Shown here: one piece after another, positions 853 through 22,234 of the stretch | Position numbering within the stretch: the first letter of the stretch is position 1 | Layout: each line of letters starts with the position of its first letter | IMG/VR virus record: IMGVR_UViG_3300025326_000209 | Location: 1-23,035 of that record | Origin: a virus | DNA: 23,035 nt | Reading direction: 5' to 3' (one strand) | Made by a program: the position numbers and the translations under genes | Notes under the pieces: model-generated | Database searches by the model: none | What the model was told of the DNA's origin: nothing | The model's input: only the letters and a program-made list of their open reading frames with translations

Positions 853-855
853 GAT

Positions 856-927
856 GTCATCCCCGAATGCTTCTATCGGGGATATGGTTTTAAAAATCAG
901 ATTCCCGATAAAAACTTCGGGAATGAC
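856..927. repeat. Palindromic repeat element, double hairpin, between tail genes
   Basis: The 95-base gap between the tape measure gene and the DUF2460 gene is almost filled by two hairpins: CCCCGA...TCGGGG (861-880) and TTCCCGA...TCGGGAA (902-923). They are enclosed by an outer inverted pair, GTCAT (856-860) and ATGAC (923-927). The right half recurs in opposite orientation at 20722-20749, identical over about 28 bases. The left half recurs with one or two changes at 7117-7138 and 19731-19752. There is no T-tract, so it is not a typical terminator. It looks like a dispersed REP/RPE-like element of bacterial origin. Confidence 0.8.
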
Positions 928-947
928 AAAATAATAAAGGCATAAAA

Positions 948-5243: not shown

Positions 5244-5737
5244 GATACATCCATCCGGTCACAGACATAACCAATTACGACATTGACCAGCTTGCCCAGG
5301 AAATAAGAAGCGCAGGTCTTGATGTGCAGGCAATTCATAGCGGCAACGGGGTTTTGCTCTTTGAATTTCAGGCGGCCATTGCGGATGCGGAAAAACCCAT
5401 ATTGCAAAACATTGTCTCAAGCCATAGCCCGACATGGTTTGAATGGACAGAAAACGAGCAACTCAAGCGGCATAAAGTCAAATGCGCAGAAGATGTGGAT
5501 AAGTTAACCGCCATGAGAATACGCAATCTCATCGGCGGCAGCGACCCTATCCAGGAGCAGCTTAAACAAATCAGATTATCTTTATGGGCGCATGATGTGC
5601 AGCTGCATAGCAACGATTATTTGCAGGCAGACATAGACATGGCTGCGCAAATACGAAACCAGATGTTGACAATCAATACAAACATTGAGGCAATCAGAAA
5701 CGAAGGCAAAGATTTTAAAACAGGAAAGGGGTGGTAA
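5240..5737 (+). CDS. Small phage protein between tail tip and fibre genes, unknown function
   Basis: This 165-residue protein has no family that I recognise with confidence. The ATG at 5240 overlaps the gpJ-like stop (ATGA), and AAGGAGG lies 11 bases upstream. An upstream in-frame ATG at 5201 would lie deep inside the gpJ gene and is less likely. The sequence is hydrophilic and mostly helical, with two Trp in the middle (SPTWFEWTENEQ) and a long C-terminal helical part. There is no signal peptide or membrane segment. Its place between the tail tip and a tail fibre gene suggests a fibre attachment, assembly or minor tail role, but this is context only. Confidence 0.6.
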   Translation: MRYIHPVTDITNYDIDQLAQEIRSAGLDVQAIHSGNGVLLFEFQAAIADAEKPILQNIVSSHSPTWFEWTENEQLKRHKVKCAEDVDKLTAMRIRNLIGGSDPIQEQLKQIRLSLWAHDVQLHSNDYLQADIDMAAQIRNQMLTINTNIEAIRNEGKDFKTGKGW

Positions 5738-5740
5738 CTC

Positions 5741-6718: not shown

Positions 6719-6730
6719 AAGGAGGAAAAT

Positions 6731-7081
6731 ATGTATATAGAATTAGAGCATGACGCGGAAGGGAATATTGCCAGTTGTTATTGCGTCGACACCTTGCCGG
6801 CATCGTCCGCCGAAAAATTATTCACAAGAAAAGACGGCACGCCGGCAGGCCTTGAGCATGTCAGAATAAATCTGGATACCCTGACAGCTATGGAGATTGA
6901 TGCCAAAAGCGGCCAGAAGGCGGTCATCAACGCAAAGGGAGAGCCTGAGATTGTGCAGATAGACAGGACACAATATATTCGGGAAAATTTTATCGTTGAT
7001 ATGACTTCTGAAGTTTCAATCCCCGCAAATGTCATAATACCGAGCGGCATGAAGATGCGGGGGCTGGCGCGAAAAAAATGA
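6731..7081 (+). CDS. Protein following tail fibre, possible fibre partner, unknown function
   Basis: This is a 116-residue protein with a textbook SD (AAAAGGAGGAAAAT before ATG) just after the tail fibre stop. It is acidic in the first half and beta-rich, with an IPANVIIPSGMKMRGLARKK end. It has no transmembrane segment or signal peptide. Position suggests a fibre chaperone or a small tail appendage protein, but I see no diagnostic motif. The last codons are followed at once by a repeat-rich gap with no coding sign. Confidence 0.6.
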   Translation: MYIELEHDAEGNIASCYCVDTLPASSAEKLFTRKDGTPAGLEHVRINLDTLTAMEIDAKSGQKAVINAKGEPEIVQIDRTQYIRENFIVDMTSEVSIPANVIIPSGMKMRGLARKK

Positions 7082-7095
7082 CGACCTATCTGGGG

Positions 7096-7140
7096 AAGTA
7101 GGGGAGGGGCACCTGGCCCCGAATGTTTCTATCGGGGATG
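7096..7140. repeat. Palindromic repeat elements before the lysis cassette
   Basis: The gap 7082-7167 carries AAGTAGGGGAGGGGC (7096-7110), which recurs exactly at 11180-11194. Next comes a CCCCGA...TCGGGG hairpin (7117-7136) of the same family as 861-880 and 19731-19750. An in-frame ATG at 7123 lies inside this hairpin and creates a false upstream start for the next gene. No promoter or T-tract is evident. Confidence 0.7.
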
Positions 7141-7167
7141 TTCCCTCCCGATAAGGAGACTAACACA

Positions 7168-7488
7168 TTGGAAGAAGAGCGGCTGATAAGGCTTGAAGAA
7201 AAAATAAAAGTAGTTGCCGGAGATATAAGCGATGTCAAGGACAGCCTGAAAGATATTGCAGCCTCCCTGAAAACCCTGGCTGTGCTTGAGGAAAAACACA
7301 ACACAGTATCCGAGGCAATCAAGCGCGCCTTCGTAATGCTTGATAAACACGCTGTGCGGCTTGACGACATAGAAAAGGCATTGCCTTATCTAAAGCTCGC
7401 CTCAAGCTGGCTGTTCAAGGGTATACTCTTTGTCATGGGCATTTTAGGAGCCGCAGCCATGCTCGTTGTGATTCGGGGAGGAAAATGA
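7168..7488 (+). CDS. XhlA-like coiled-coil membrane protein of the lysis cassette
   Basis: The protein has 106 residues: a long N-terminal coiled coil (about 1-75, with repeated LEEKIK/DDIEKAL heptads) and one C-terminal transmembrane helix (about 82-103) ending in a short basic tail. This is the plan of XhlA-type hemolysin/holin accessory proteins, which sit at the membrane and help timed lysis. The start is TTG at 7168 with AAGGAG 9 bases upstream; the in-frame ATG at 7123 lies in a palindromic repeat and has no SD. The stop overlaps the next ATG (ATGA). The neighbours, an endolysin and a 3TM holin, support a lysis role. Confidence 0.7.
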   Translation: MEEERLIRLEEKIKVVAGDISDVKDSLKDIAASLKTLAVLEEKHNTVSEAIKRAFVMLDKHAVRLDDIEKALPYLKLASSWLFKGILFVMGILGAAAMLVVIRGGK

Positions 7489-7703
7489 GCGCCTGCCCTC
7501 AAATGCCTCTATTGGGGGGACATGATGAATCTGACGCTATAAAAGAGCTTAAGAAACTATCTGACAATGCAAAAATGTTTTTAGCGCATCAAATCAGAAA
7601 TTCTCTAACTGTTATTATGTTCGCTGTTGCTAATGGCAATAAGCAGGCGGCAAGTGATGAATTGTGGGCATTAAAGCATAAATTGAATGGGTGGGGTTTA
7701 TGA
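7485..7703 (+). CDS. Small protein with H-box-like motif, unknown function
   Basis: This 72-residue protein is translationally coupled to its neighbours by ATGA overlaps on both sides (GGGGAGGAAAATGA at the start). Residues of about 33-42 read AHQIRNSLTV, close to the H-box of sensor kinase HisKA domains (H-E-x-R-N-P-L-T). It is followed by a second amphipathic helix, as in a DHp hairpin. There is no ATPase domain, so it is not a kinase by itself. The resemblance could be chance in a short helical hairpin. Its position between the XhlA-like and endolysin genes suggests a part in lysis control, but this is inference. Confidence 0.6.
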   Translation: MSACPQMPLLGGHDESDAIKELKKLSDNAKMFLAHQIRNSLTVIMFAVANGNKQAASDELWALKHKLNGWGL

Positions 7704-8113
7704 AAAACGAACACTTGTTAAACCAATGCACCCCGAAATTGGCCGCCCTTTTTAAAAGTGTGGATACAGAATTTGCGGAAGTTGAGATTCTTCCATCTAC
7801 AATTCGCACTATTGCACAGCAGGTGGAGTTTGTCAAAAACGGGACAAGCAAGACTATGAGCAGCAAACATTTGATCACTATAGAACATCCGCTATCCCGG
7901 GCCGTTGACGCAAGTTTCGCGCCAATGAAATGGCCGGTAGAAGGTTCTGCGGATTTTTGGAAGGATTGGGCGCGGCTTTATTATTTTGCCGGAATGGTGA
8001 TGGCTAAAGCTAAAGATTTAGGCATTAAAATTCGTTTCGGCGGTGATTGGAATGGCAATTTTACTTTAAAAGACGAGAATTTTTTTGATGGGGTGCATTT
8101 TGAAGAATTGTAA
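7700..8113 (+). CDS. Endolysin, M15-type L-Ala-D-Glu / D-Ala-D-Ala peptidase
   Basis: The protein has 137 residues and matches the compact peptidase M15 (VanY/T5 endolysin-like) fold. The zinc ligands are visible in order: SSKHL (His57), RAVDASF (Asp70) and the C-terminal DGVHFEEL (His133), with Asp130 and the FGGDWNGN segment (113-120) where the family has its conserved GG-W turn. It would cut peptide stems of peptidoglycan. There is no signal peptide, so it needs a holin; one lies about 550 bases downstream. The ATG at 7700 overlaps the previous TGA (ATGA), preferred over the upstream ATG at 7691. Confidence 0.87.
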   Translation: MKNEHLLNQCTPKLAALFKSVDTEFAEVEILPSTIRTIAQQVEFVKNGTSKTMSSKHLITIEHPLSRAVDASFAPMKWPVEGSADFWKDWARLYYFAGMVMAKAKDLGIKIRFGGDWNGNFTLKDENFFDGVHFEEL

Positions 8114-8120
8114 TTCAAAA

Positions 8121-8642
8121 ATGAAAAAACTCTCCATAACAATCTTATTGTTTTGGACACTCTGCATCCCTGTTAGGGGGACTGTTAGGGGGACTGTCCC
8201 TATTTACGGCGAGGAAGAAACAGGAATGCGTAGAATAGGGACAGTCCCCAACAAAGCAGAAAGCCACAAACCTTATTCTGATTTATATTTTGTTATTGCC
8301 TACGACCAGCCATCCGAGCCTGCCATAAGGCAAGGTCTAAAAAGGAATTTCCCTGACAAGGAAAAGTTTTTGAATACACATCGCATTATGCAGCTCATCA
8401 TTCACGGTTCAGATGAATTTTGCGCCAATGAATTTATAGTTACAAATGGCGTAAAAAGCATTGAGGCAGTATTGCTTATTTTTACCGCACAGAATGAATG
8501 GATTGCGACTTATTGCCATAATGTTATTGGTTTCACCTGGGGATATATTTTTATCCCAATTGAAAATGGCAACCAAGAGATAGGATTTATATATAAAAAT
8601 AAGTATGGAAAAATAGAAATTGCAAGGGAAATGCAGATTTAG
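8121..8642 (+). CDS. Exported protein of unknown function, carrying a palindromic repeat insert
   Basis: The predicted protein has 173 residues from the ATG at 8121 (KKLSITILLFWTLC), which gives a clear signal peptide; an upstream in-frame ATG at 8085 would bury it. Directly after the hydrophobic core, residues 19-44 (RGTVRGTVPIYG...RIGTVPN) are encoded by a repeat with a perfect 16-base inverted pair, so the signal cleavage region is made of repeat sequence. The remainder (about 50-173) is mixed alpha/beta with one Cys near residue 100 (SDEFCANEF) and another near 130. I do not recognise the family. Its place between endolysin and holin could mean a spanin-like, lysis or lysogenic-conversion role; none is shown. 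The SD is weak. Confidence 0.6.
   Translation: MKKLSITILLFWTLCIPVRGTVRGTVPIYGEEETGMRRIGTVPNKAESHKPYSDLYFVIAYDQPSEPAIRQGLKRNFPDKEKFLNTHRIMQLIIHGSDEFCANEFIVTNGVKSIEAVLLIFTAQNEWIATYCHNVIGFTWGYIFIPIENGNQEIGFIYKNKYGKIEIAREMQI
8173..8249. repeat. GGGACTGTCCC-type inverted repeat inside a gene
   Basis: Two tandem copies of TTAGGGGGACTG (8173-8184 and 8185-8196) lead into an inverted pair. Arm GGGGACTGTCCCTATT (8189-8204) is the exact reverse complement of AATAGGGACAGTCCCC (8234-8249), with a 29-base loop. Each arm holds its own small palindrome (GGGACTGTCCC / GGGACAGTCCC). The element lies in frame in the gene 8121-8642 and encodes the GTVP peptides. I know this repeat type as a dispersed chromosomal element in some Gram-negative genomes. 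Confidence 0.85.
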
Positions 8643-8663
8643 GATAGGACAAAAGGAGGCATT

Positions 8664-9140
8664 ATGATTCTCGGCGACATATTACAAGGCGTTTTTGGGG
8701 AGAAAGGCATAGCGGGAGAAGTTGTGGATGTCCTGAAAAGCAGCGGTGTCATCAAAGACCCTGACATGGAACTCAAAATCCGGCAAGCCCTGCAAGATTA
8801 TGAGCTTAAGAAAAGTCAGCAGGACGTTGACCTCTCAAAAATCGCCGCAGACGATAGAAAGAGCGCAAGAGACATGAACATCACCTCTCTCCAGCAGGAT
8901 GATAAGTTTGTTAAGCGATTTATATATATGTATGCCTCTATAACCACCTTTGTAACTTTCCTATATATCTTTCTTGTTACTTTCTGGACCATACCTGAAA
9001 CAAATGTCCGGTTTGCCGACACGGTTTTAGGCTTTTTTCTCGGCACGCTTCTGGCGACGATTATAACTTTTTTCTTCGGTTCAAGTTCGTCAAGCCTTGC
9101 AAAAACACAGGTCATTGACAAACTCGTAAGGGGGAAATAA
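8664..9140 (+). CDS. Holin, 3TM-type (GTA/phage holin superfamily)
   Basis: The protein has 158 residues with two strong transmembrane helices (about 88-110 and 119-138), preceded by a hydrophilic helical half (residues 30-85, DLSKIAADDRKSARD). This matches the GTA/phage 3TM holin family (PF11351-like), where the KIxxxDRxSARxM segment precedes the membrane part; here AADDRKSARDM is at 61-71. The C-terminus is basic (DKLVRGK). The SD is strong (AAAAGGAGGCATT). It would open the inner membrane so that the M15 endolysin reaches the wall. The stop is adjacent to the next ATG (TAAATG). Confidence 0.82.
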   Translation: MILGDILQGVFGEKGIAGEVVDVLKSSGVIKDPDMELKIRQALQDYELKKSQQDVDLSKIAADDRKSARDMNITSLQQDDKFVKRFIYMYASITTFVTFLYIFLVTFWTIPETNVRFADTVLGFFLGTLLATIITFFFGSSSSSLAKTQVIDKLVRGK

Positions 9141-9854
9141 ATGCTTGCAAAATCAATACCACAAATAGGCCATCAAATATTGCAATCAACAGCGATGCCG
9201 ATTATTATCCCATCATCAGGTTCAATGGCGGCTAATGGTGTGGTTACGCTTACTACTGCCCTGCCGAATATTTATCCCGATGTTTATTTATATTTCCCAT
9301 CGGGAGCGGTCTATTCAGGCTCAGCCGCAGGATTTTATTACGCCGTAATGAGTTCCACAACAGCCGGCACAGTCTATGACAATATTTATGTCCCCGGAAC
9401 TAACTTACCTAATATACCAGCCTCGCCTACGCCTATCGTGGCGGCAGGGCCTGGCGCATATACACAATCCACTTCTGAAATTACGGCAGTTAGCGTGAAT
9501 GTTGTCGGCGGGTCTATGGGAAAGAATGGAATAGTGAAAATAGAAGCAACAATATTTGTTAACAATAGTGCAAATACTAAAACAGTGAAATGGAAATTTG
9601 GAGCGATGCAGATTAATTTTATGACTGCGATAACAATAAACAGAGCTTTGGGTAGAGTTGCTATTATTAACAGAGGGAGAATAGATAGGCAAACTGCAAG
9701 TTATTTGGTTGATGGCGCAAACACAATAAATCCTCCTGTTTTTTCAATAGACACTGCTACTGACCAAGCACTAAACATAACTCTGCAACTTACAGTTGCA
9801 ACAGATTATTTGGGTATGGATTATTTCTTTACTGAATTACTACCGAAAAAATAA
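9141..9854 (+). CDS. Virion protein, probable tail fibre / receptor-binding beta domain
   Basis: This 237-residue protein begins straight after the holin stop, with AAGGGGGAAATA before ATG as SD. The segment PIIIPSSGSMAANGVVTLTT (20-39) followed by YLYFPSGAVYSGSAAGFYYAVMSS (about 51-74) and TAGTVYDN is a pattern I know from many phage genes annotated as tail or structural proteins. The second half (about 110-237) is beta-rich with alternating hydrophobic residues and ends in TDYLGMDYFFTELLPKK. There is no signal peptide, membrane helix or enzyme motif. It is most likely a fibre or spike domain; the precise role is inferred. Confidence 0.7.
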   Translation: MLAKSIPQIGHQILQSTAMPIIIPSSGSMAANGVVTLTTALPNIYPDVYLYFPSGAVYSGSAAGFYYAVMSSTTAGTVYDNIYVPGTNLPNIPASPTPIVAAGPGAYTQSTSEITAVSVNVVGGSMGKNGIVKIEATIFVNNSANTKTVKWKFGAMQINFMTAITINRALGRVAIINRGRIDRQTASYLVDGANTINPPVFSIDTATDQALNITLQLTVATDYLGMDYFFTELLPKK

Positions 9855-9864
9855 GGAGGAAAAT

Positions 9865-10332
9865 ATGATTCAGGAAATGATAAATACTAACGAAAATATA
9901 GTGTATGCGGAAAACTATCCAGAACCAAAACATATCTGGATAGATGGAAAACGGATAATACTATATACAGAACAAGATACCGTTATCATAACAATGGATG
10001 AAGTAAGGGCTAACAAAGAAGAGGGCATCAGAAATTATTACGCTGACCAGATTGAGGCTATAGTTGCGCCATACAAAATTCAAGAAAGGGAAACATGGTT
10101 TAAACAGGTTGAGGAAGCTGTCAAATGGTCGGCGGATAATAATATTGAAACACCCCTTATTGACGCTATAATAATCGCGAGGGGAACAACAAAAGCTGAA
10201 CTCGTATCCATAATACTTACAAAGCAGTCAGTTTATATATCGGCAGTAGGCGCTATTTTAGGAAAACAACAGAATTTAATCATCCAAGTTTATGCGGCGA
10301 CTACAATAGAGCAGATAAATGATATAGCGTAA
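9865..10332 (+). CDS. DUF4376-like protein, possible tail fibre assembly partner
   Basis: The protein has 155 residues from the ATG at 9865, which follows AAGGAGGAAAAT; a longer frame from 9796 lies inside the previous gene. The N-terminal part is beta-like (HIWIDGKRIILYTE). The C-terminal part (about residues 75-155) is a helical region with QERETWFKQVEEA and NIETPLIDAIIIARG, the layout of DUF4376 domains found in fibre-associated proteins after tail fibre genes. Its location after the preceding fibre-like gene fits. Assembly chaperone and structural roles are both possible. Confidence 0.62.
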   Translation: MIQEMINTNENIVYAENYPEPKHIWIDGKRIILYTEQDTVIITMDEVRANKEEGIRNYYADQIEAIVAPYKIQERETWFKQVEEAVKWSADNNIETPLIDAIIIARGTTKAELVSIILTKQSVYISAVGAILGKQQNLIIQVYAATTIEQINDIA

Positions 10333-10344
10333 AAGGAGGAAATC

Positions 10345-10734
10345 GTGGCAAACGCAAAATTGATAAGCACAGCTTGGGGCGAAACTGGCATAACTGCATA
10401 TTGCATAGTGCGGCGTGGATCAGACAATTATCGCCTTGATGATGTAGACGGCTCATTTGCCGCGAGTCCGGCAGACCCTTATTTATCGTTATCGGAAGAC
10501 AGCGTCCTCAAAGGTCTATATGAAGTTTCGGAAAACAGAACTGCCTGGACTGACGGAAGATACCTTGTTGCTATATATAAACAGATTGGCGGCAGCCCTG
10601 CGCCTGCAAGCGATGCGATAATCGGCGGCGGAGAGATAAATATAAACGGTGATTTGGAAGTGATTTCTGTAACCCTTTCCAATTATATCAAAAAAGCGCT
10701 TGTCTCGCTTAAAGACAAAATAGTGGGTTTTTAA
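10345..10734 (+). CDS. Phage virion protein of unknown function
   Basis: This 129-residue protein starts at GTG 10345 with a strong SD (AAAAGGAGGAAATC). The sequence is beta-rich (AYCIVRRGSDNYRLDD, TDGRYLVAIYKQIGG) and ends in a short amphipathic helix (YIKKALVSLKDKIVGF). It resembles small structural proteins near tail fibres that carry a jelly-roll-like module, but I cannot name a family. It is in the run of virion genes 9141-14024 on the same strand with short gaps, so co-expression is likely. Confidence 0.6.
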   Translation: MANAKLISTAWGETGITAYCIVRRGSDNYRLDDVDGSFAASPADPYLSLSEDSVLKGLYEVSENRTAWTDGRYLVAIYKQIGGSPAPASDAIIGGGEININGDLEVISVTLSNYIKKALVSLKDKIVGF

Positions 10735-10756
10735 ATTCTAAAAGGAGGATAAGAAA

Positions 10757-11179
10757 ATGGCAGATCTGATCTACAATGCGTTCAAAAAAAACATAATGAA
10801 CGGAGGCATAGACCTTGACACAGACACAATCAAGGTAATGCTGGTAACATCAGCCTATGTGCCCGACCAGGACACGCATGAGTTCAAATCCAGCGTGACC
10901 AACGAGGTTTCCGGCACAGGCTACACAGCAGGCGGCGCAACCCTTGCAGGCGCTGCGGTTACCCAGGACAACACCGACAATGAAGGCATGTTTGACGCCA
11001 CCGATGTTACATGGGGATCTTCAACGATTACGGCAAGAGGAGCGGTAATCTACAAGAGCACAGGCGTTGACGCCACATCGCCGCTGATTTGCTACATAGA
11101 TTTCGGCTCGGATAAAAGTTCCAATAACGGCGACTTCACTATCAGTTGGAACGCAGAAGGGATTTTGAATCTGAATTAA
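10757..11179 (+). CDS. Phage structural protein (conserved MADLIYNAFKKN family)
   Basis: This 140-residue protein belongs to a conserved phage structural family I recognise by its start (IYNAFKKNIMNGGIDLDTDT, residues 5-24) and by VTNEVSGTGYTAGGATLAG (47-65), TITARGAVIYKSTG (about 90-103) and ICYIDFGSDKSSNNGDFTI (110-128). The family is widespread in phages and usually annotated as a tail or capsid-decoration protein; its true position in the virion is unsettled. The SD is strong (AAAAGGAGGATAAGAAA). A hairpin-forming repeat follows the stop. Confidence 0.75.
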   Translation: MADLIYNAFKKNIMNGGIDLDTDTIKVMLVTSAYVPDQDTHEFKSSVTNEVSGTGYTAGGATLAGAAVTQDNTDNEGMFDATDVTWGSSTITARGAVIYKSTGVDATSPLICYIDFGSDKSSNNGDFTISWNAEGILNLN

Positions 11180-11206
11180 AAGTAGGGGAGGGGCTTGTCC
11201 CCTCCT
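11180..11206 (+). promoter_or_regulatory. GC-rich hairpin holding the only SD-like sequence before the next gene
   Basis: GGAGGGG (11187-11193) pairs with CCCCTCC (11199-11205) around a 5-base loop. The only SD-like stretch upstream of the ATG at 11215 is inside this stem and lies about 20 bases from the start. The hairpin may repress translation or be a leftover of a dispersed repeat: AAGTAGGGGAGGGGC also occurs at 7096-7110. It has no following T-run, so I do not call it a terminator. Confidence 0.5.
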
Positions 11207-11214
11207 AATAAACA

Positions 11215-13341
11215 ATGGCAAACAACATAAAATCCATAGAATCTCTGGCCGAAAGCACAGAGGCCGCTGGCACACGCACAACCAAAGCCCAGCTTCAGTT
11301 TACTCCTGTTGAATCGTCTAATTGGCTCATCCTTTTTTCAGCAGAGGTTAAAAGCTCTGCGTCCAATGACGCTGATATAGCCGTATTTTTCAACGTCAAC
11401 GGCGCAGATAAATCAAGCATTGTGGAATCATGCGGGAGCACTTCAATTGATTATCGCAATGTTTCAGGCTTCTATTATGTTACAGGCCAGACAGCGCAGC
11501 AAACATATAAGATAGATTTTAACCGCATTAACACAAACACAGCATCCATAAAAAATGCCCGTATCGTTGCCATAAGAACCGATGTCGCAGGCGCAGATGT
11601 GAGATATGCAGAATCTCTCGGTGAAGCAACCAACATTGGAACTACTTATGGAGCAAGAGCTACCCTCTCTTTTACCCCTGCAACAGCAGGCGATTATTTA
11701 GTCCTCGCCTGCTGTGAAGGCCGCAGTGACGATGCAGCAACCTCCTGGGGCGCAAGAGTCAATCAAAATTCAGGCGCACTCTATGTCCCAATACTAACAA
11801 CAGGTATAGAGCATTACATACAAGAGGATGTTAACACAGGAGTCTGGCAGCCATTTTTTGCAGGCAGGGTTATCAATCTTGCTGCAAGCGCACAGACCCT
11901 GGCGATTGAAACTGTAGGTGAATCAGGCTCTACGGCAGACACAAGGGCCCACAGAATCATAGCCATAAGGCTATCTAATGTATATACTTATGGCAATGCC
12001 CAGACAGATACAGCAGCAACCAACACCGCAACCACACCCGGCGTCAGAAACACACTCAACACCACCGCCCCAGGCAGCGTAAAAGAATGTCTGATCGTAG
12101 CAACGCAACACAACAGAAATAGCGCTGCCAATGCCTCTGCTTATGGCGAATTTGAAATTGATGACACCATAGTTGCAGGCAATAGACACGAGCCGCAGGA
12201 TACTACAGATTTTTGGTCTTTCGGCGTAGGCATATATAAACAAGTAAACGCCAGCCAGAGCATAAAACTTGAGACAACTTGGTATGGCGACACGACAGCA
12301 ACGCATACCATCAAAAATTCAAGCATTACATACATCGAAATCGAATCAGCGTCAACGCCTGTAACCGTCACCCCATCAGTCCAATCTGTAGTCTCTTCGT
12401 TTATTGCGCCGCTTATAAAAATAGGAACCATCCTGCTTGTTGCAGCCCAGACAGCATTATGCTCTGTCCAGGCCCCGACAATCGCTGTTAATGCCTTCCA
12501 TGCGCCGCCTGCTCAAGTAATAACTGTTAATCAGCAAGCGCCAGGAATCAAGACCAATTCTATTATAACCCCGGCAGTTCAGGGGACAAGTGTCTCTATT
12601 CAACCGCCGGCAGTAAAAATACCTATCACTGTTGCGCCTGCGGCCCAGACAGTTTCTTCAGCTTTCCAAACCCCTACAATCAAAATAGGGGTTTCTCACA
12701 GCGCCGGAGCACAGACGGCGAGCTGGACAATACCGCCGCCTAATATTATTATAAATACCCTCATCACCCCTCCGGTTCAAGCTACGCTCTATTCTATTCA
12801 GCCCCCCACAATATCGGGAGATGCGAATATATCTGGTTCGATTCAAACTGCGCTGTTTTCTATTCAGGCTCCGACAGTGGTGGTGGGCGGCAATATTGTT
12901 ATAACCCCGGCAGTTCAGGGGACAAGTGTCTCTATTCAATCGCCAATAGTAACAACATCAGGCGGCGCCCTCATAACGCCATCTGCGCAGTCCATTGCTT
13001 ATTCTATCCAATCTCCGGCAATATCCGGAGATGCAAACATATCTATCTCTGTGCAGGGCGTATCCGTCTCTATTCAATCCCCAACAATTATAATACCTGG
13101 CAATATTATCATTACCCCTAATGTTCAAACTGCGTCAATATCCCTGCAAACCCCCAATATAAAACAGGGCGTTGGCATAAACGCATATATCCAAGCCATA
13201 ACCACAAACTTGTTGCCGCCGGCAATATCTACAGACAGTCTAATCCAGCCATCAGCGCAGAATTTAATATTTACAATACTTGCAACAGGCGCAAAAAGCT
13301 ATAAATCATTTTATCTAAAATCAGGGAGGGTTAGACCATGA
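11215..13341 (+). CDS. Large virion protein with 14 tandem C-terminal repeats
   Basis: The protein has 708 residues. Residues of about 1-375 hold two related beta-sandwich-like halves (LQFTPVESSNWLILFSAEV near 28-46; LSFTPATAGDYLVLACCEG near 150-168) and a third similar unit near 270-370, giving an internal triplication of a jelly-roll-like domain. From about residue 383 to 690 come 14 imperfect repeats of 22-24 residues of the form I-T-P-x-V-Q-x-x-S-x-S-I-Q-x-P-x-I, a likely extended beta-solenoid or fibrous shaft. The last residues are basic (SFYLKSGRVRP). No SD lies at the normal distance. It is probably a fibre or decoration protein. The stop overlaps the next start (ATGA). Confidence 0.75.
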   Translation: MANNIKSIESLAESTEAAGTRTTKAQLQFTPVESSNWLILFSAEVKSSASNDADIAVFFNVNGADKSSIVESCGSTSIDYRNVSGFYYVTGQTAQQTYKIDFNRINTNTASIKNARIVAIRTDVAGADVRYAESLGEATNIGTTYGARATLSFTPATAGDYLVLACCEGRSDDAATSWGARVNQNSGALYVPILTTGIEHYIQEDVNTGVWQPFFAGRVINLAASAQTLAIETVGESGSTADTRAHRIIAIRLSNVYTYGNAQTDTAATNTATTPGVRNTLNTTAPGSVKECLIVATQHNRNSAANASAYGEFEIDDTIVAGNRHEPQDTTDFWSFGVGIYKQVNASQSIKLETTWYGDTTATHTIKNSSITYIEIESASTPVTVTPSVQSVVSSFIAPLIKIGTILLVAAQTALCSVQAPTIAVNAFHAPPAQVITVNQQAPGIKTNSIITPAVQGTSVSIQPPAVKIPITVAPAAQTVSSAFQTPTIKIGVSHSAGAQTASWTIPPPNIIINTLITPPVQATLYSIQPPTISGDANISGSIQTALFSIQAPTVVVGGNIVITPAVQGTSVSIQSPIVTTSGGALITPSAQSIAYSIQSPAISGDANISISVQGVSVSIQSPTIIIPGNIIITPNVQTASISLQTPNIKQGVGINAYIQAITTNLLPPAISTDSLIQPSAQNLIFTILATGAKSYKSFYLKSGRVRP
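12361..13290 (+). repeat. Tandem repeat array inside the virion protein gene
   Basis: Fourteen imperfect units of about 66-72 bases encode the TPxVQ...SIQxP repeats. Two stretches, 12563-12603 and 12899-12939, are identical over 41 bases including synonymous sites. Another pair encodes ISGDANIS near 12811 and 13020. Such identity in an otherwise diverged array points to recent duplication or gene conversion between units, and repeat number could vary between phage isolates. Confidence 0.8.
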
Positions 13342-14024
13342 TAGTCAACGGATTATACCGCGGTTATATCAGGCTTTACCAAATCGCAGACGAAAATTCA
13401 GAACCCCAGCCTCTCACAGGCAAAGGCACAAATGATTTTACAATCCAAACCACAAAGGGCGGTTCTCCCGTGTCGCTTGCCGTAACAATAACCGAGGTAA
13501 GCGCAGCACAGCGTCCCGGCCTTTACAAAATTGAAACAACGCCAACAGAATCCAACGACTACAGAATAGAAATAGAACTTACAGGCAATACCGTCAATCC
13601 GAAATTCATCATAGACAGCCAGTCATATCTTTACGACATGGATTCTTCATTCGTTCAGGTCCTGCCATTCTCAGGCTCCGTTTCGGTTGGCTATGCCAAA
13701 GCAGGCACGGTGACAGAGATAGTTGCAGGAGATACAGTTTCTATTCCTTACGACATTGACACAAATTTGACTGGTAAAAAAATCTACTTCGCTGCAAAGG
13801 CATCTGAAAGCGACACAACCTATGCCATCGCAGTCAAAGAAATTACAAGCTATCTCACAGATGTTGTCAATGGACTTGGGACTATACCACTCATATCAGC
13901 AGAGACCATTCTCACCGCAGGTATTTATAAGGCAGAATTAGAAATCCGCAACACAGACGGCACATCGCCGGTAACAGCGATGAAATTTGATTTGAGAGTG
14001 AAGGCGCAAATAATTACAGCATAG
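13338..14024 (+). CDS. Virion protein with BppU-like beta domain(s)
   Basis: The protein has 228 residues and starts at ATG 13338, overlapping the previous stop (ATGA), with GGGAGGG upstream. Residues of about 1-105 form one beta-rich unit (YIRLYQIADENSE...NDYRIEIEL). Residues of about 120-228 form another, with VAGDTVSIPYDIDTNLTGKK (residues 129-148) and IYFAAKAS, which resemble the N-terminal domain of BppU-type baseplate proteins that anchor receptor-binding proteins. It is the last gene of the late operon; the attachment site and a strong terminator follow. The BppU link is by pattern only. Confidence 0.65.
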   Translation: MIVNGLYRGYIRLYQIADENSEPQPLTGKGTNDFTIQTTKGGSPVSLAVTITEVSAAQRPGLYKIETTPTESNDYRIEIELTGNTVNPKFIIDSQSYLYDMDSSFVQVLPFSGSVSVGYAKAGTVTEIVAGDTVSIPYDIDTNLTGKKIYFAAKASESDTTYAIAVKEITSYLTDVVNGLGTIPLISAETILTAGIYKAELEIRNTDGTSPVTAMKFDLRVKAQIITA

Positions 14025-14035
14025 CGGCCAAAACC

Positions 14036-14059
14036 ATGACCCATTGATTTACAAGTGAT
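14036..14059 (+). promoter_or_regulatory. Putative left-arm (P) recombination protein sites
   Basis: ATGACCC at 14036-14042 and AAGTGAT at 14053-14059 lie left of the tRNA-derived core. They repeat motifs found in number right of the core (14201-14308). Motifs on both flanks of a core are expected for arm-type sites of tyrosine integrases or for excisionase sites. This is inferred from position and repetition only. Confidence 0.4.
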
Positions 14060-14078
14060 TAATTTTATAAACAATCAA

Positions 14079-14127
14079 CCGCCCTTTCACGGCGGTAACC
14101 CGGGTTCGAATCCCGGTGGGGACGCCA
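14079..14127 (+). other. attP: attP core: 3' half of tRNA-Glu(TTC)
   Basis: From the anticodon stem to CCA the sequence is a clean tRNA-Glu 3' half: stem CCGCC (14079-14083), loop CTTTCAC with anticodon TTC at 14086-14088, stem GGCGG (14091-14095), T-arm CCGGG-TTCGAAT-CCCGG (14100-14116), acceptor strand TGGGGAC (14117-14123), G, CCA (14125-14127). The 5' half of a tRNA is absent: upstream is AT-rich phage sequence without GTCCCC. This is how phages that integrate in tRNA genes rebuild the tRNA. A tyrosine integrase gene lies 1.1 kb away. It is not a functional tRNA here. Confidence 0.88.
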
Positions 14128-14138
14128 GATAATTAAGT

Positions 14139-14189
14139 GGCTGTAATATCAGGATATTTTATAAATATCGGGATGTTACAGCCTTTTTT
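14139..14189 (+). terminator. Strong rho-independent terminator of the late operon
   Basis: GGCTGTAATATC (14139-14150) pairs with GATGTTACAGCC (14172-14183) with one G-T wobble. The stem continues after a 2x2 internal loop as GATATTT (14153-14159) with AAATATC (14163-14169) around a 3-base loop. Six T follow (14184-14189). It would end transcripts from the virion genes just past the attachment core and shield the minus-strand genes. Confidence 0.88.
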
Positions 14190-15203: not shown

Positions 15204-16331
15204 TTACGCCCTGAATTTCATCTTTTTGAGCGGGGATTCTTTGGATTCTATAATATGCAGGTAGCGGGTTGTGGTGGAGAGGCGCTTGTGGCCGGCTCTG
15301 TCCATTGTGTAGCGAAGGTCGTTGCTTGCGCGCAAAAGGTTGGTAACAAAGGTATGTCGCAGGGAATATGGCGTGCCGTCAATCTCTATCTTGCGCAGGA
15401 TGTGTCTTATAGCCCTGCTTATTGACTGCGGGACAAGTTGATTGTTTCCGCCGCAAAGATATTTTCCGCCGCCTGCCTGTGCAGGCACGGCAGACAGGCG
15501 CAGCAGGCATGTTGAAATATAGACATTGAGCTTTGGGTGGATTTCAATGCTTCGGAGCATTCCTGTTTTGGTTTCGCCGTGGATCATGATTTTGCCGGCA
15601 CGGATGTCTTGTGCAGTGAGCCGGATAATCTCTGATGGCCGCAGGCCCGCATAGAGATAAAGCATGACAACAGCCCGCAGATAACCGCGCAGGTATGCCT
15701 TCCTCTTTTTTAATTCCTGCATAAAAACAATAAGGTCTTCGTAAGACAGGGCGCAGGGAAGCCGTTCGTCATTTATTGGCGGGGCAGGGACTTGTCTTGC
15801 AGGGTTATCGCTGCCCATGTAATCCAGCAGCTTTCTGATGAGCGTATGCTCCTTGCGGCTCGTGGCGTTTTTGATGCCTTGTTGTTTCCGTTGTGAGATG
15901 TAGCTCTCTACATCTTCTTTTGTTATGTCTGCCGGAGTCTTGCCGGGGAAATATTTGTGCAGATAGTCCAGGACAACCTTGACTTTATCTGCATTCCTTA
16001 TATGCGTTGTTGAGCGGCAGTTGGCGCGGGACCAATCTTCATATTTTTTGGCAAGTTCATTCCATGTGAACGGTGCGGAGATTTTCGAGGATGAGAGCTG
16101 AGCGGCTTCTTGCTGGGAGATGTAGCCCCGGTTGCGGCAAAAGATTATTTCATCTTTTGAGAGTTCGGTTTTGCGGGAGAGGCTTTCAAGTTTATGAATA
16201 TCTGTATAGATTGCCTTTGCAATGTCTTTGCTCTTTGCCCAGCGGGTCTTGTCGGCATGGGTTCCGTCAAGGAAAAACACCCGATACATAATCCGCCAGC
16301 CTTTAGTCTTTGAGGGGTAGAGGTGGGGCAT
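15204..16331 (-). CDS. int: Tyrosine integrase (site-specific recombinase)
   Basis: The protein has 375 residues. It has an N-terminal arm-binding-like part (1-80), a SAM-like core-binding domain (about 87-172) and a catalytic domain (about 190-370). The visible active-site residues are Arg231 (AGLRPSEIIRL), Lys255 (GETKTGM), Arg325 in SLRHTF, His348 (AGHKRL) and the nucleophile Tyr357 (TTTRYLH). The first His of the H-x-x-R box is a Tyr (YSLR, 322). Residues of about 276-295 (LLRLSAVPAQAGGGKY) are encoded by a palindromic repeat, an apparent in-frame insert. The start lies 4 bases after the lipoprotein stop, so it is in the repressor operon. It should recombine the tRNA-Glu core at 14079. 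Confidence 0.92.
   Translation of the reverse strand: MPHLYPSKTKGWRIMYRVFFLDGTHADKTRWAKSKDIAKAIYTDIHKLESLSRKTELSKDEIIFCRNRGYISQQEAAQLSSSKISAPFTWNELAKKYEDWSRANCRSTTHIRNADKVKVVLDYLHKYFPGKTPADITKEDVESYISQRKQQGIKNATSRKEHTLIRKLLDYMGSDNPARQVPAPPINDERLPCALSYEDLIVFMQELKKRKAYLRGYLRAVVMLYLYAGLRPSEIIRLTAQDIRAGKIMIHGETKTGMLRSIEIHPKLNVYISTCLLRLSAVPAQAGGGKYLCGGNNQLVPQSISRAIRHILRKIEIDGTPYSLRHTFVTNLLRASNDLRYTMDRAGHKRLSTTTRYLHIIESKESPLKKMKFRA
15471..15500. repeat. Palindromic repeat inside the integrase gene
   Basis: GCCTGCCTGTGCAGGCAC followed by GGCAGACAGGCG forms a short palindrome (TGCCTG-TG-CAGGCA, 15474-15487) with a further GACAGGC arm. This resembles dispersed GCCTGCC...GGCAGACAGG repeats known from bacterial chromosomes. 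It lies in frame between the catalytic Lys and the H-x-x-R box and adds a Gly/Ala-rich stretch. Confidence 0.55.
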
Positions 16332-16335
16332 GAGA

Positions 16336-16845
16336 CTATTGTGCGGACTTTAATAGTCCCGTATGAACATCTCTGAACACATCAAAAGAACTTCGAGAGT
16401 CAAGGTCTATAAGGTCTATTTGTTTAAGCATTTTTGTGCCGTAATCTGTTCCACTATCCGTATAGATTTTTCTTATTGTCGGCAATACGATTCTTTCAGT
16501 CGCCTTTATCTCATCATATTTCACTTTTCCATAGACCATGTATTCCACGAATCCGTCTGAAGGTGAATGTCTGGATTCGGCAATTTTTTGCTTTCTGTCA
16601 GCATACCCCCAAGCTGTATCTTCCCAATGAGCCATGAATTGTGTTGTTGCCTGTTCAGTGGAGTTGCTTTCTAAAAGTTTTGCGGCCATAAGACAGGCAC
16701 TATAATTATGATCTCGGGTAGTCTGACACTCGGGCACAATCGTCATAAGTTTTGTGTATCCTGTTGGATATAATGCCTGAACAGATGGAAGCAAGGCACA
16801 GCTACCCAAAATAAAAAGAGAAAAAATTATCAATAATCTTTTCAT
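16336..16845 (-). CDS. Predicted lipoprotein in the lysogeny operon
   Basis: This 169-residue protein has a lipoprotein signal: MKRLLIIFSLFILGSC, with lipobox LGSC and the lipidated Cys at 16. No Asp follows the Cys, so outer membrane sorting is likely in a Gram-negative host. The mature part is hydrophilic with two further Cys (about 39 and 50, ECQTTRDHNYSACLMAAKLL) that could form a disulfide, and is mostly helical. I do not recognise the family. Its start overlaps the end of the HsdR_N gene (ATGA) and the integrase follows within 4 bases. A lipoprotein co-expressed with the repressor is a good candidate for superinfection exclusion or lysogenic conversion; this is inference. Confidence 0.75.
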   Translation of the reverse strand: MKRLLIIFSLFILGSCALLPSVQALYPTGYTKLMTIVPECQTTRDHNYSACLMAAKLLESNSTEQATTQFMAHWEDTAWGYADRKQKIAESRHSPSDGFVEYMVYGKVKYDEIKATERIVLPTIRKIYTDSGTDYGTKMLKQIDLIDLDSRSSFDVFRDVHTGLLKSAQ

Positions 16846-17600
16846 GTTGGGGAGACCTTAGACGGAGATGGTTCAGATGCAGGAGGTTCTGTGACAGGCT
16901 GTTCAGGCGCATTATGTCTTGATGCTTTTCTCTTTCGTTTTATTTTTACATCGCCGATAGATTCCCATGTTTGTGAGGATATCATTCCTTTAATGCCTGC
17001 TATCAAATCCTGTTCCTCTATGGTTACGCCTGACATCTTTTTAAGATGTGTCCGCATCATGCGCAAGGTGTTTTCATGGAAGATTGACTGGACAATACTT
17101 CGGGGGGACAGCGCTTTAATTTTAGAGTAATAATCTTCATGCTCGCCTTTTAATATGCTTTTTTTATGAAAGAGAGACAATTTATCGGATGCGTCATCGG
17201 CAAGTATATTTGTTGATATAATAAGGTCGCTTTGAATTCCCTCATCAAATGTAAGATGATACATTTGCCATGCAATGCCGTTTGTAAGCAGCACCCATTC
17301 AACGCCTGCATTTGCCGCATAGTTGCTGGCCTGCTCTATATGTTTTTCCTTCAGTTCTATTCCTGCCTGTTTTATCTCAATGAAAAACATTACCTTACCA
17401 TCCGCTTTTATGGCGTAATCCACATAGCGATCCTTGATGGTATGTTCCTTTGTGATGTCATGGAATACATCATATCCGAGCACATCTTCAAGAAACTTTC
17501 CTATGCGAAGCGATGTTTCCGCTTCATTGATATTTTGTTCCTGCGCCTGTTGAAAGATGGGAATGTATTTTTTTAAATCCTTTGTTATATCTATTGACAT
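16842..17600 (-). CDS. HsdR N-terminal-like PD-(D/E)XK nuclease domain protein
   Basis: The protein has 252 residues and matches the stand-alone HSDR_N_2 domain (type I restriction enzyme R subunit N-terminus). The PD-(D/E)XK core is visible: YVDYAIK (Asp61), then MFFIEIKQAG (Glu75, Lys77), followed by a helix with QASNYAANAGVEWVLLTNG (90-108), typical of this family. No helicase or methylase domain follows, so it is not a full restriction enzyme. The C-terminus is Lys/Arg-rich (about 218-232), then a Pro/Ser tail. The SD AAAGGAGGT is strong. It lies between repressor and lipoprotein in one operon, so lysogen defence against other phages is possible; the activity is not shown. Confidence 0.82.
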   Translation of the reverse strand: MSIDITKDLKKYIPIFQQAQEQNINEAETSLRIGKFLEDVLGYDVFHDITKEHTIKDRYVDYAIKADGKVMFFIEIKQAGIELKEKHIEQASNYAANAGVEWVLLTNGIAWQMYHLTFDEGIQSDLIISTNILADDASDKLSLFHKKSILKGEHEDYYSKIKALSPRSIVQSIFHENTLRMMRTHLKKMSGVTIEEQDLIAGIKGMISSQTWESIGDVKIKRKRKASRHNAPEQPVTEPPASEPSPSKVSPT

Positions 17601-19398: not shown

Positions 19399-19956
19399 AT
19401 GAGCGATTGCATATACACAGGTTGCAAGAAGGAAGCTAAAATAGAAGGATTTTGCGTGAAGCATTTTAAGCATAAGCAAAAGGCGCTGGGAGAGATTGAA
19501 CATGAGAACAGCCAGCCTGTGCAACGGCAGATAGATGAGCCATGCTGTCCAAAGTGCGGCAGGAAGGCATCAGAGGTTAGGACATTTATAAAAAAAAGAG
19601 GGATGTGTAAGGACTGCGCATATTCATATAAAAGCAAGAAAAGAAAAAAGAAAGATATAAAACTGGATTCCCGCTTAAAGCCTGCGGGAATGACAAAAGA
19701 AAAGCCTGCGGGAATGACGAGTAAGCTTGTCCCCGAATGTTTTTATCGGGGAGCGGACTCGATCAATCATCCGCCGCATTACACGCAGGGCAAGATTGAG
19801 GTTATTGACTTTATCGCAGACCAGCAGATGGGCTATATGGACGGTAATATAATCAAATATATCGCAAGGTATCGGCACAAGGGCAGCGCCGTGGAGGATT
19901 TAAAAAAGGCAAAGTGGTATTTAGAAAGGCTGCTCGCAGAGGTGGACGGAAATTAG
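19399..19956 (+). CDS. Zinc-finger plus DUF3310 protein, joined by palindromic repeat
   Basis: The protein has 185 residues. The N-terminal 1-85 region has Cys/His-rich segments: CIYTGCKKEAKIEGFCVKHF (4-23) and CCPKCGRKA...GMCKDC (49-73). Residues of about 121-182 are a clear DUF3310 domain (NHPPHYTQGKIEVIDFIADQ, then GNIIKYIARYRHKG and DLKKAKWYLERLL), found in many phages and often near nucleotide metabolism genes. The linker 89-118 (LDSRLKPAGMTK, EKPAGMT, KLVPECFYRG) is encoded by dispersed palindromic repeats. The SD AAGGAGGCATT is strong and the frame is open throughout, so the joined protein is probably made. Two once separate genes fused through repeats, or an insertion in a linker, both fit. 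Confidence 0.82.
   Translation: MSDCIYTGCKKEAKIEGFCVKHFKHKQKALGEIEHENSQPVQRQIDEPCCPKCGRKASEVRTFIKKRGMCKDCAYSYKSKKRKKKDIKLDSRLKPAGMTKEKPAGMTSKLVPECFYRGADSINHPPHYTQGKIEVIDFIADQQMGYMDGNIIKYIARYRHKGSAVEDLKKAKWYLERLLAEVDGN
19661..19752. repeat. Composite palindromic repeat in frame in the DUF3310 gene
   Basis: GGATTCCCGC (19665-19674) and GCGGGAATGAC (19684-19694) form an arm pair. AAGCCTGCGGGAATGAC is repeated directly at 19678-19694 and 19702-19718. A CCCCGA...TCGGGG hairpin (19731-19750) of the family seen at 861 and 7117 follows. Together they encode about 30 residues without a stop codon. Confidence 0.85.
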
Positions 19957-20188: not shown

Positions 20189-20294
20189 TTCAAAGTGCCG
20201 TCTTACAGGCATTCTTTGTAATGGCGACCATGGGGCATGTTTTGAAACAATTGATTCAGGGGACGCAGAGGAGCTTTTACGAAGTGAAGCATAG
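20163..20294 (+). CDS. Small Cys/His-rich protein
   Basis: This 43-residue protein starts at ATG 20163 with AAAGGAGA 4-5 bases upstream, a better SD than any start of the overlapping frame downstream. It has Cys4, His7, Cys12, Cys19, His23 and Cys26, enough for one zinc site, and an acidic helical end (GDAEELLRSEA). It overlaps the HTH gene by 26 bases and the next gene by 11 bases if that starts at GTG 20284. It could be a small zinc-binding regulator; no family is recognised. Confidence 0.5.
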   Translation: MTTCQWHDNSKCRLTGILCNGDHGACFETIDSGDAEELLRSEA

Positions 20295-20757
20295 CCATGA
20301 CATCAAGCATAGCCATAAAGTCCCACCATCAAGAGTTAACACTTTATCGGAGTGTTTCTATAAGCCTTGCGGAAAGGCATTTGCACCCAAAAGGGTTGAT
20401 ATGGTTTTTTGTTCGCCTGAATGCAAAAAAACGCATTATCAAGAAGCATACAAAAAGGGGGTGAAACTCATGCAGGCAAAAGGGATGCGGTTTTCAAAAT
20501 TGGAAACATCGTTGCGTTTGCAAAGGCTCTATAAATATCTTTCGGACAGGGAGCCCCATTCAACGCGGGAAATCGGCGAGGCAGTTAATCTGGAGGCAGT
20601 TGGCTCATCTATCGGCGAGCTCAGACGAAACATCAGGCCCAAGGGCATGGACATATCCTGCAGGTTTAGCGGCAGGACGCAAGACGGCGCAAGCATCTAT
20701 TTATATCAACTTGTACCTGTAGTCATTCCCGAAGTTTTTATCGGGAATCCAGAATGA
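20284..20757 (+). CDS. Zinc-finger and winged-helix-like early protein with repeat-derived end
   Basis: The frame runs back to ATG 20221 but that start has no SD and overlaps the 43-residue frame; GTG 20284 follows GAGGAG by 10 bases and is preferred (157 residues). A Cys-type finger CFYKPCGKAF...FCSPEC lies at about residues 23-48. A helical part with RLQRLYKYLSDREPHSTREI (about 78-97) and GSSIGELRRN reads as a winged helix with the recognition helix at the end. The last dozen residues (VVIPEVFIGNPE) and the stop codon come from a palindromic repeat (20722-20757), so the original C-terminus was replaced or extended. DNA binding is likely, the target unknown. Confidence 0.65.
   Translation: MKHSHDIKHSHKVPPSRVNTLSECFYKPCGKAFAPKRVDMVFCSPECKKTHYQEAYKKGVKLMQAKGMRFSKLETSLRLQRLYKYLSDREPHSTREIGEAVNLEAVGSSIGELRRNIRPKGMDISCRFSGRTQDGASIYLYQLVPVVIPEVFIGNPE
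20722..20757. repeat. Palindromic repeat that supplies a stop codon
   Basis: GTCATTCCCGA (20722-20732) and TCGGGAAT (20741-20748) form a hairpin, ending in AATGAC, where TGA (20755-20757) is the stop of the gene. About 28 bases are identical to the reverse complement of 900-927. Two identical copies 20 kb apart in one phage show recent spread or exchange. Confidence 0.85.
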
Positions 20758-21405: not shown

Positions 21406-21711
21406 ATGAAGATAGATTTATGCGTAGAGCTGCACTCCCGATACTGTGTCTGTAGCGGCACAGGATGGCTCAGTAGATTGTTGCGTGCAGCGCAGAAATG
21501 CCAAGGCGACTGCATAATTATAACTTATGGAGACTGGCTTGCTATGGGCAAGCCCGCCACAACAGAAGCCCTATTGCAAAATCTTGAAGAAGGAAAATCA
21601 AACAAACATGTTGAGTTTATCAATACGCTGTGCGTGGCAATTGAAAAAGAGCTTACACCGCCACCTCGCCCCGCACCCCACATAGGTGAGGAACAGGACA
21701 AGGAAAGATAA
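21406..21711 (+). CDS. Small Cys-containing early protein, unknown
   Basis: This 101-residue protein has several Cys in its first 37 residues (LCVELHSRYCVCSGTGWLSR, then KCQGDC), possibly a metal site. A helical middle (TTEALLQNLEEGKSNKHVEF) and a Pro-rich end (PPPRPAPH) follow. The SD is TTAAGG about 10 bases before ATG. It lies just before the ligase gene (1-base gap), so coupling is likely. I do not recognise a family. Confidence 0.58.
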   Translation: MKIDLCVELHSRYCVCSGTGWLSRLLRAAQKCQGDCIIITYGDWLAMGKPATTEALLQNLEEGKSNKHVEFINTLCVAIEKELTPPPRPAPHIGEEQDKER

Positions 21712-21712
21712 T

Positions 21713-22234
21713 ATGGTAACAGAAAAAGATATGACTTTAGGGTTAGACTGGGATGGTTGCGAAACGACGGGATGGTTTATCTCGGAGAAATTCAATGGCT
21801 GTCGTGCATACTGGGATGGGAAAACGCTTTGGACACGCAACGGAAAGACCATTAAGGCGCCGGAATGGTTTACCCGCAGCTTGCCGCAAGACAAGCACCT
21901 TGACGGAGAAATTTATGCCGGATACGGCACGTTTGAAGAGGCGCGGTTGGCCACGCAGTATGGAAAATTCACCAAGAACATCAGATTTATGGTTTTTGAT
22001 TGCCCCACCGCAGCGGGAACATGGGATAAGCGCATAGCACATGCGCCTACAACACCGACCTCATATCCGGTATCGTATCGGCTATGTGTAAATAGAGTTG
22101 ATATGCTCGCAGAATTGGCTACCGTGCAGGCAAGGGGCGGAGAGGGATTGGTCATTCGCAGGATGGATGCGCCATTTTACGAAAAGGGAAGGACGAAAAA
22201 TTTATTGAAAGTGAAGGCGGCATTATCATTATAG
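21713..22234 (+). CDS. Minimal ATP-dependent DNA ligase, LigE-like, without OB domain
   Basis: The protein has 173 residues and contains most of a nucleotidyltransferase fold: motif I ISEKFNGCRAYWDG (Lys26 as AMP-binding nucleophile), motif III-like region with LDGEIYAG (Glu67) and FMVFDCP (93-98), motif IV GGEGLVIRR (142-150) and motif V LLKVK (164-168). The wording W-x-SEKxxGxRAYWDG is close to LigE-type ligases. The usual Asp in K-x-D-G is Asn (KFNG), and the protein ends right after motif V, so the OB domain that LigE and other ligases need is missing. The start at 21713 follows AAGGAAAGATA. It could be a nick-sealing enzyme helped by another protein, or a degenerate one. Confidence 0.8.
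   Translation: MVTEKDMTLGLDWDGCETTGWFISEKFNGCRAYWDGKTLWTRNGKTIKAPEWFTRSLPQDKHLDGEIYAGYGTFEEARLATQYGKFTKNIRFMVFDCPTAAGTWDKRIAHAPTTPTSYPVSYRLCVNRVDMLAELATVQARGGEGLVIRRMDAPFYEKGRTKNLLKVKAALSL

What the first reader, a model, noticed from the sequence alone, without database searches (positions are those of the whole stretch)
19661..19752. Palindromic repeats form the linker of a zinc-finger/DUF3310 protein
About 30 residues (KPAGMTKEKPAGMT...VPECFYRG) between two recognisable parts are encoded by dispersed palindromic repeats, including a direct duplication of 17 bases 24 apart. The frame is kept. This parallels Rickettsia palindromic elements inserted in genes, but in a phage.
Basis: partly seen in the sequence, partly recalled or inferred. 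Interest (0 to 1): 0.7.

Follow-up and report, generated by a model that had tools for sequence, protein, structure and literature searches.

The report
Host palindromes coding a phage linker
A groundwater phage carries the small hairpin-forming DNA repeats of its bacterial host, and some of them sit in frame inside a phage gene and code for a protein linker; the host's own genes carry the same 27-base repeat, and sister species lack it at those positions.

Summary
Residues 89-118 of the DUF3310 protein (ORF 19399-19956) are encoded by three repeat pieces: a REP-like palindrome (19664-19695), a 24-bp duplication of half of it, and a 27-bp palindromic unit CTTGTCCCCGAATGTTTTTATCGGGGA (19726-19752). 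The repeats belong to the host. A near-identical prophage fragment (L172) continues past the tRNA-Glu att site into DNA identical to 'Deltaproteobacteria bacterium GWF2_42_12'. Against 0.84 Mb of host-clade DNA, the only matches in the 23-kb window are repeats and the att site. The 27-bp unit is an exact in-frame insertion in at least two host-clade genes (a RACo-like activase and a sugar-nucleotide epimerase), absent from sister species. It also sits, at exactly 27 bp, in the loops of two other hairpin repeats (24 to 51 bp, 23 to 50 bp). A related phage fragment lacks the repeat dimer at 851-947. Protein-coding palindromes are known (Rickettsia RPE; intragenic CGTC/GTAG REPs), so this is a new variant: a short unit of nine codons, a Deltaproteobacterial host and a phage carrier. 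Not shown: an empty site for the DUF3310 gene itself, the mobilising enzyme, or any function.

The parts
19399..19956 (+). ORF of 185 aa: N-terminal CxxC...CxxC region, repeat-coded linker (aa 89-118), C-terminal DUF3310 domain
   Evidence: AlphaFold: DUF3310 part pLDDT 80-97, linker region about 52-64 with no secondary structure
19664..19695 (-). Unit C: REP-like palindrome; on the - strand TGTC tag, stem ATTCCCGC, 9-nt loop, stem GCGGGAAT, tail CCA; codes DSRLKPAGMT on the + strand
   Evidence: nine local matches in host-clade DNA, the best 81-94% identical; 24 copies in G001 within 2 mismatches of the pattern, reversed control 0
19701..19718 (+). Second copy of 18 bp of unit C, part of a 24-bp tandem duplication (KPAGMTKE / KPAGMTSK)
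19726..19752 (+). Unit A: 27-bp palindromic unit CTTGTCCCCGAATGTTTTTATCGGGGA, 9 codons LVPECFYRG
   Evidence: same boundaries as exact 27-bp host inserts; conserved positions span the same 27 bases in 38 contexts
855..928 (.). Inverted dimer of two palindromes, tags outwards, intergenic; missing from a related phage fragment (L171: 9 bp in place of 97 bp at 851-947)
   Evidence: dozens of host-clade copies
7098..7148 (+). 51-bp composite: GTAG-tagged palindrome with the 27-bp unit A nested in its loop; contains the ATG of ORF 7123-7488
8190..8248 (+). Another host repeat (GGGACTGTCCCTATTTACG ... CGTAGAATAGGGACAGTCCC) in frame behind the putative signal peptide of ORF 8124-8642
   Evidence: 83-85% identity to copies in G005 and G001; hairpin z = -6.5
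11174..11215 (+). Simple 24-bp GTAG-tagged palindrome with flanks, at an ORF end / intergenic
20722..20752 (+). REP-like palindrome, 31 bp identical to host copies; codes the last residues (VIPEVFIGNPE) of ORF 20221-20757
   Evidence: PHROG match in that protein ends at aa 164 of 178
14080..14127 (+). 3' part of tRNA-Glu(TTC): attachment site shared with the host
15204..16331 (-). Tyrosine-type (phage) integrase
   Evidence: PF00589, E=1.3e-19

Best explanation
The linker is made of host-type small palindromic repeats that came into a temperate phage gene and are translated. The phage integrates at tRNA-Glu of a Deltaproteobacterium whose chromosome is littered with REP-like palindromes. One of these, unit A, is a discrete 27-bp unit (YYTGTCCCCGAA-N7-TATCGGGGA or close to it) that inserts precisely into new sites, including loops of other hairpin repeats and open reading frames. 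Because 27 is a multiple of three and five of its six frames have no stop, an insertion in a gene adds nine residues (LVPECFYRG, LSPNVSIGE, SPIETFGDK and others) and survives where the protein has a tolerant loop or linker. In the phage, unit C, a 24-bp duplication of half of it and unit A together code the disordered linker between the CxxC region and DUF3310. Shown: repeat identity, host, exact 27-bp inserts and empty sites in host-clade genes, one empty site in a related phage fragment, disorder prediction. Inferred: that unit A still moves; that it moves as a single-stranded hairpin served in trans by an unidentified enzyme (its hairpin-plus-tag form and its nesting in hairpin loops suggest this); that the phage took up its copies while integrated in the host; that the inserts are near-neutral passengers.
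For: Host: the 50-bp flank of prophage fragment L172 is found exactly in G001, whose contigs C16 and C81 break at the tRNA-Glu att site. The window shares only repeats and the att site with 0.84 Mb of host-clade DNA. Exact 27-bp in-frame inserts: RACo-like gene of G006, absent in two sister species; epimerase gene of G001, absent in five siblings. Nesting: GTAG palindrome 24 to 51 bp, GTTCCCACGC palindrome 23 to 50 bp; RHS paralogues differ by a 28-bp unit lying in the loop of an older copy. Further in-frame cases: proS, folC, TIGR03960 radical SAM, DNA methylase, GT4 glycosyltransferase. Unit A lies in ORFs of 200 aa or more in 11 of 33 cases against 2 of 85 for the other palindrome classes, Fisher p=1e-5. 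Conserved positions end sharply at the 27-bp borders. Empty phage site: L171 has 9 bp where the window has 97. Linker without predicted structure.
Against: No empty-site orthologue of the DUF3310 gene is available. No transposase could be tied to unit A: genes with Y1 transposase domains are present but none has unit A beside it, and those with flanking hairpins carry other families. No target-site duplication is visible. The general test for nesting in inverted repeats was weak (2 of 38 contexts against 1.2% in control pairs). L171 differs from the window by 11% upstream of position 850, so its empty site is an orthologous site and not a same-strain polymorphism. Class A loci were partly fetched because they held the motif, so the class comparison is not a random sample.
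Confidence: 0.8

Rival explanations
1. Fusion by repeat: the repeats entered the boundary between two neighbouring genes, a zinc-ribbon gene and a free-standing DUF3310 gene, removed the stop codon and joined the two frames, so the linker made the protein and did not enter an existing linker.
For: Many DUF3310 relatives are short and start a few residues before the domain. In viral locus L058 a CxxC ribbon ORF and a DUF3310 ORF are separate neighbours in the same order. In host-clade locus L105 the palindrome joins the end of an RND-type transporter to the next ORF in one frame.
Against: Similarity of the L058 ribbon to this N-terminus is very weak (E=0.05). DUF3310 proteins with other N-terminal parts exist (PHROG matches), so the fusion may be older than the repeat.
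Confidence: 0.4
2. The phage gained the whole gene, repeats included, by recombination with the host or another prophage; the elements themselves did not move in the phage.
For: The host is full of the repeats; phage genes are exchanged often, and L171 shows a divergence change close to the 851-947 element.
Against: Nothing but the repeats and the att site is shared between the window and the sampled host-clade DNA. No DUF3310 relative is found in 8 genomes of the host family.
Confidence: 0.25
3. The hairpins are kept for a function in RNA or DNA, such as transcription attenuation, mRNA stability or sites for recombination, and their translation is incidental.
For: Most copies of the other classes are intergenic, and the dimer and the 8190 repeat fold strongly (z about -6.9 and -6.5).
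Against: Unit A in genes is short and only moderately stable (z -1.9 to -2.4), lies in unrelated genes, and is absent in sister species.
Confidence: 0.15
4. Chance low-complexity coding sequence.
For: The linker is Lys-rich on its N-terminal side.
Against: Shuffle controls and host copies.
Confidence: 0.01

Closest known systems
CGTC-tagged REPs (Di Nocera et al. 2013, PMC3733652; include Neisseria dRS3 and Rickettsia RPE-4/RPE-6)
   Same: Short palindrome with a (C/T)GTC tag at one end; for units of type C and B also an 8-bp stem beginning AT and a CCA tail; dimers; no transposase of their own; some copies in frame in genes, in loops and linkers
   Different: Loops here are 8-9 nt instead of 4-5; unit A has a 7-bp stem without the AT start and no CCA tail; host is a Deltaproteobacterium; copies in a phage
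Rickettsia palindromic elements RPE-1 and kin (Ogata et al. 2000, 2002, as described in PMC2229807 and PMC10969869)
   Same: Palindromic repeats inserted in frame in unrelated conserved genes, adding peptide segments; mechanism of spread unknown
   Different: RPE are 105-150 bp in an obligate intracellular alphaproteobacterium; here one unit is 27 bp, in groundwater bacteria (MAGs) and their phage
GTAG REPs / REPINs with RAYT transposases (PMC3733652, PMC3116915)
   Same: Window 11174 and the outer part of window 7098 are GTAG-tagged palindromes; RAYT-type Y1 genes occur in the host clade
   Different: Unit A bears no GTAG tag and lies beside no Y1 transposase found here

Membership tests
CGTC REP | CGTC (or TGTC/CCTC) tag at one end | tested here: met
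   TGTC in units A and C (sequence)
CGTC REP | Stem of 8-9 bp starting with AT | tested here: inconclusive
   Met by units of type C (19664-19695) and B (20722-20752); not met by unit A, stem TCCCCGA/TCGGGGA. Unit A is therefore not filed as a member
CGTC REP | Loop of 4-5 nt | tested here: not met
   Loops of 8-9 nt; 38 of 39 unit A copies have a 9-nt loop; exceptions are noted in PMC3733652
CGTC REP | CCA tail | tested here: inconclusive
   Met by types B and C, not by unit A
CGTC REP | Intragenic copies in frame | tested here: met
Rickettsia RPE (RPE-1 type) | 105-150 bp palindrome with long terminal inverted repeats | tested here: not met
   27-bp unit, 7-bp arms
Rickettsia RPE (RPE-1 type) | In-frame insertion in conserved protein genes, absent in relatives | tested here: met
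Rickettsia RPE (RPE-1 type) | Insert is translated | not testable with these tools
   needs proteomics
GTAG REP / REPIN with RAYT | GTAG tag and RAYT gene flanked by the same repeat | tested here: not met
   Unit A has no GTAG tag; no unit A palindrome beside the 24 Y1 loci read; those with hairpins carry other families
MITE | Target-site duplication | tested here: not met
   27-bp inserts without visible duplication

The most novel reading that the evidence does not exclude
A 27-bp hairpin unit is an active, very small mobile DNA unit of exactly nine codons that targets hairpin loops and genes, is served in trans by an unidentified single-strand enzyme, and is carried between bacteria by temperate phages whose own proteins it lengthens. 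The sharing of an identical 28-mer of the related type B palindrome by groundwater MAGs of several phyla would then reflect phage-borne spread.
Probability: 0.25. Interest if true: 0.75.

Novelty: new variant of a known kind. Interest (0 to 1): 0.52.

Why it matters
How small palindromes without a transposase of their own (CGTC REPs, RPE) move and enter genes is an open question. Here the unit has exact borders, empty and filled sites in sister species, and a phage that carries host repeats in coding positions. That gives a way to date insertions, look for the enzyme, and test phages as carriers. It also shows that repeat-coded peptides occur in phage proteins, which annotation and domain predictions may misread.

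Tried and rejected
Chance: rejected by shuffles and host copies. RAYT link: Y1 genes found but not beside unit A. Rfam: no match in the window. Same 28-mer or the 26-bp form of unit A in other IMG/VR phages: none; the looser type B pattern gave three viral contigs, none with a convincing insertion inside a gene. Relatives of the N-terminus and of ORF 20221: none. Phylum scan: the 26-bp form of unit A in only 2 of 395 sampled genomes of the phylum of G006. General test for nesting of unit A in inverted repeats: only 2 of 38 contexts.

Full report
Observation. The DUF3310 ORF (19399-19956) is real as an open frame and carries the domain at aa 122-176. Its residues 89-118 are encoded by palindromic repeat sequence: unit C at 19664-19695, a second copy of 18 bp of it at 19701-19718 (24 bp apart, frame kept), and unit A at 19726-19752, which starts on a codon boundary and reads LVPECFYRG. 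Shuffles give 0.03 matches for the CCCGAANNNTTNTATCGGG motif where the window has three, and 0.007 strict palindromes where it has five.

Host. A near-identical fragment (L172, 99.99% over 1020-14134) leaves the phage at a tRNA-Glu 3' end and continues into DNA identical to contigs of 'Deltaproteobacteria bacterium GWF2_42_12' (G001), whose assembly breaks at that tRNA. A tyrosine-type integrase lies beyond the att site in the window. The 28-mer common to window 899-928 and 20722-20749 occurs in GTDB only in 18 stretches of groundwater and related MAGs labelled Deltaproteobacteria, Nitrospinota, Nitrospirae and Mariprofundaceae. Binning errors could inflate that spread.

What the phage shares with its host. 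Against 0.84 Mb of host-clade DNA the window matches only at 834-959, 7098-7160, 8190-8248, 11174-11215, 14080-14147 (att), 19643-19704, 19724-19761 and 20722-20752. Four of these touch ORFs: the start of ORF 7123, the inside of ORF 8124-8642 behind its putative signal peptide, the DUF3310 linker, and the C-terminus of ORF 20221. In L171, a relative 88.7% identical on one side and 99.94% on the other, 9 bp stand where the window has the 97-bp stretch with the dimer.

The 27-bp unit. In the RACo-like (corrinoid activation) gene of G006, TTGTCCCCGAATGTTTCTATCGGGGAA is an exact 27-bp addition relative to sister species G008 and G009. In an NAD-dependent sugar epimerase gene of G001 itself, TCCCCGATTAAAGATTTCGGGGACAAG is an exact 27-bp addition relative to five siblings. 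A GTAG-tagged palindrome exists in simple 24-bp form and in a 51-bp form with the unit in its loop (the latter at window 7098). A GTTCCCACGC palindrome exists as 23 bp and as 50 bp with the unit in its loop, and the long form lies in proS and in a TIGR03960 radical SAM gene of G004. Two RHS paralogues differ by a 28-bp copy lying in the loop of an older copy, which breaks the frame. Across 38 contexts the conserved positions run from CT(TG) to the final A of TCGGGGA, and the loop is 9 nt in 38 of 39 copies. Other in-frame cases are folC, a DNA methylase and a GT4 glycosyltransferase. In folC and proS the same loops carry other repeats in related species, so these are tolerant sites.

Class difference. 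Unit A is inside ORFs of at least 200 aa in 11 of 33 cases; the other palindrome classes are in 2 of 85. Among the first 20 contigs of G001, taken without regard to repeats, numbers are small but in line: for unit A, 1 inside, 1 at a gene end and 4 intergenic; for types B and D, all 12 intergenic. Unit A is open in five of six frames.

Mechanism. Precise length without a visible target duplication, an asymmetric tag beside a hairpin, and insertion in loops of other hairpins fit a single-stranded hairpin route served in trans. This is inference: no enzyme was linked to unit A. In proteins the insert is probably a neutral addition; AlphaFold gives the phage linker low confidence and no structure, with a well-defined DUF3310 domain.

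Insertion or fusion. No close orthologue of the DUF3310 gene was found. Many relatives have DUF3310 as a free-standing protein, and L058 has a CxxC ORF and a DUF3310 ORF as separate neighbours, so the repeats may have joined two genes. In host-clade locus L105 a palindrome does join two ORFs.

Prior art. Intragenic REPs with CGTC or GTAG tags, in loops and linkers, and without a known transposase for CGTC, were described by Di Nocera et al. 2013 (PMC3733652); RPE in Rickettsia are reviewed in PMC2229807 and PMC10969869. The library searched held no account of such elements coding part of a phage protein, but it lacks most subscription journals. Unit A fails the stem, loop and tail features of CGTC families and is called CGTC-REP-like only.

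Noticed in passing
L210-L212 (proS) and L219-L225 (folC): The same loop of an essential enzyme carries different repeat-coded inserts in related species, so these loops act as tolerant sites for several repeat families.
   Followed up: partly
L124, about aa 302-322: The RACo-like protein carries a second repeat-like in-frame segment (PPHPSLSPMGRGLGRGARNEE), absent from the homologue of known structure.
   Followed up: no
L083-L100: An identical 28-bp palindrome occurs in MAGs labelled as Deltaproteobacteria, Nitrospinota, Nitrospirae and Mariprofundaceae: horizontal spread or binning errors.
   Followed up: no
window 186-850 versus L171 8-666: Identity to L171 changes abruptly from 88.7% to 99.9% around the repeat dimer, a likely recombination breakpoint.
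   Followed up: partly
window 16842-17597: ORF of 252 aa on the - strand matching only the N-terminal part of type I restriction R subunits (HSDR_N_2), beside a Cro/CI-type regulator and the integrase.
   Followed up: no
window 21686-22231: Short protein matching the ATP-dependent DNA ligase family (PHROG 114), about a third of the profile length.
   Followed up: no
L058 2980-3400: A CxxC ribbon ORF directly followed by a separate DUF3310 ORF, the unfused counterpart of the window's arrangement.
   Followed up: partly
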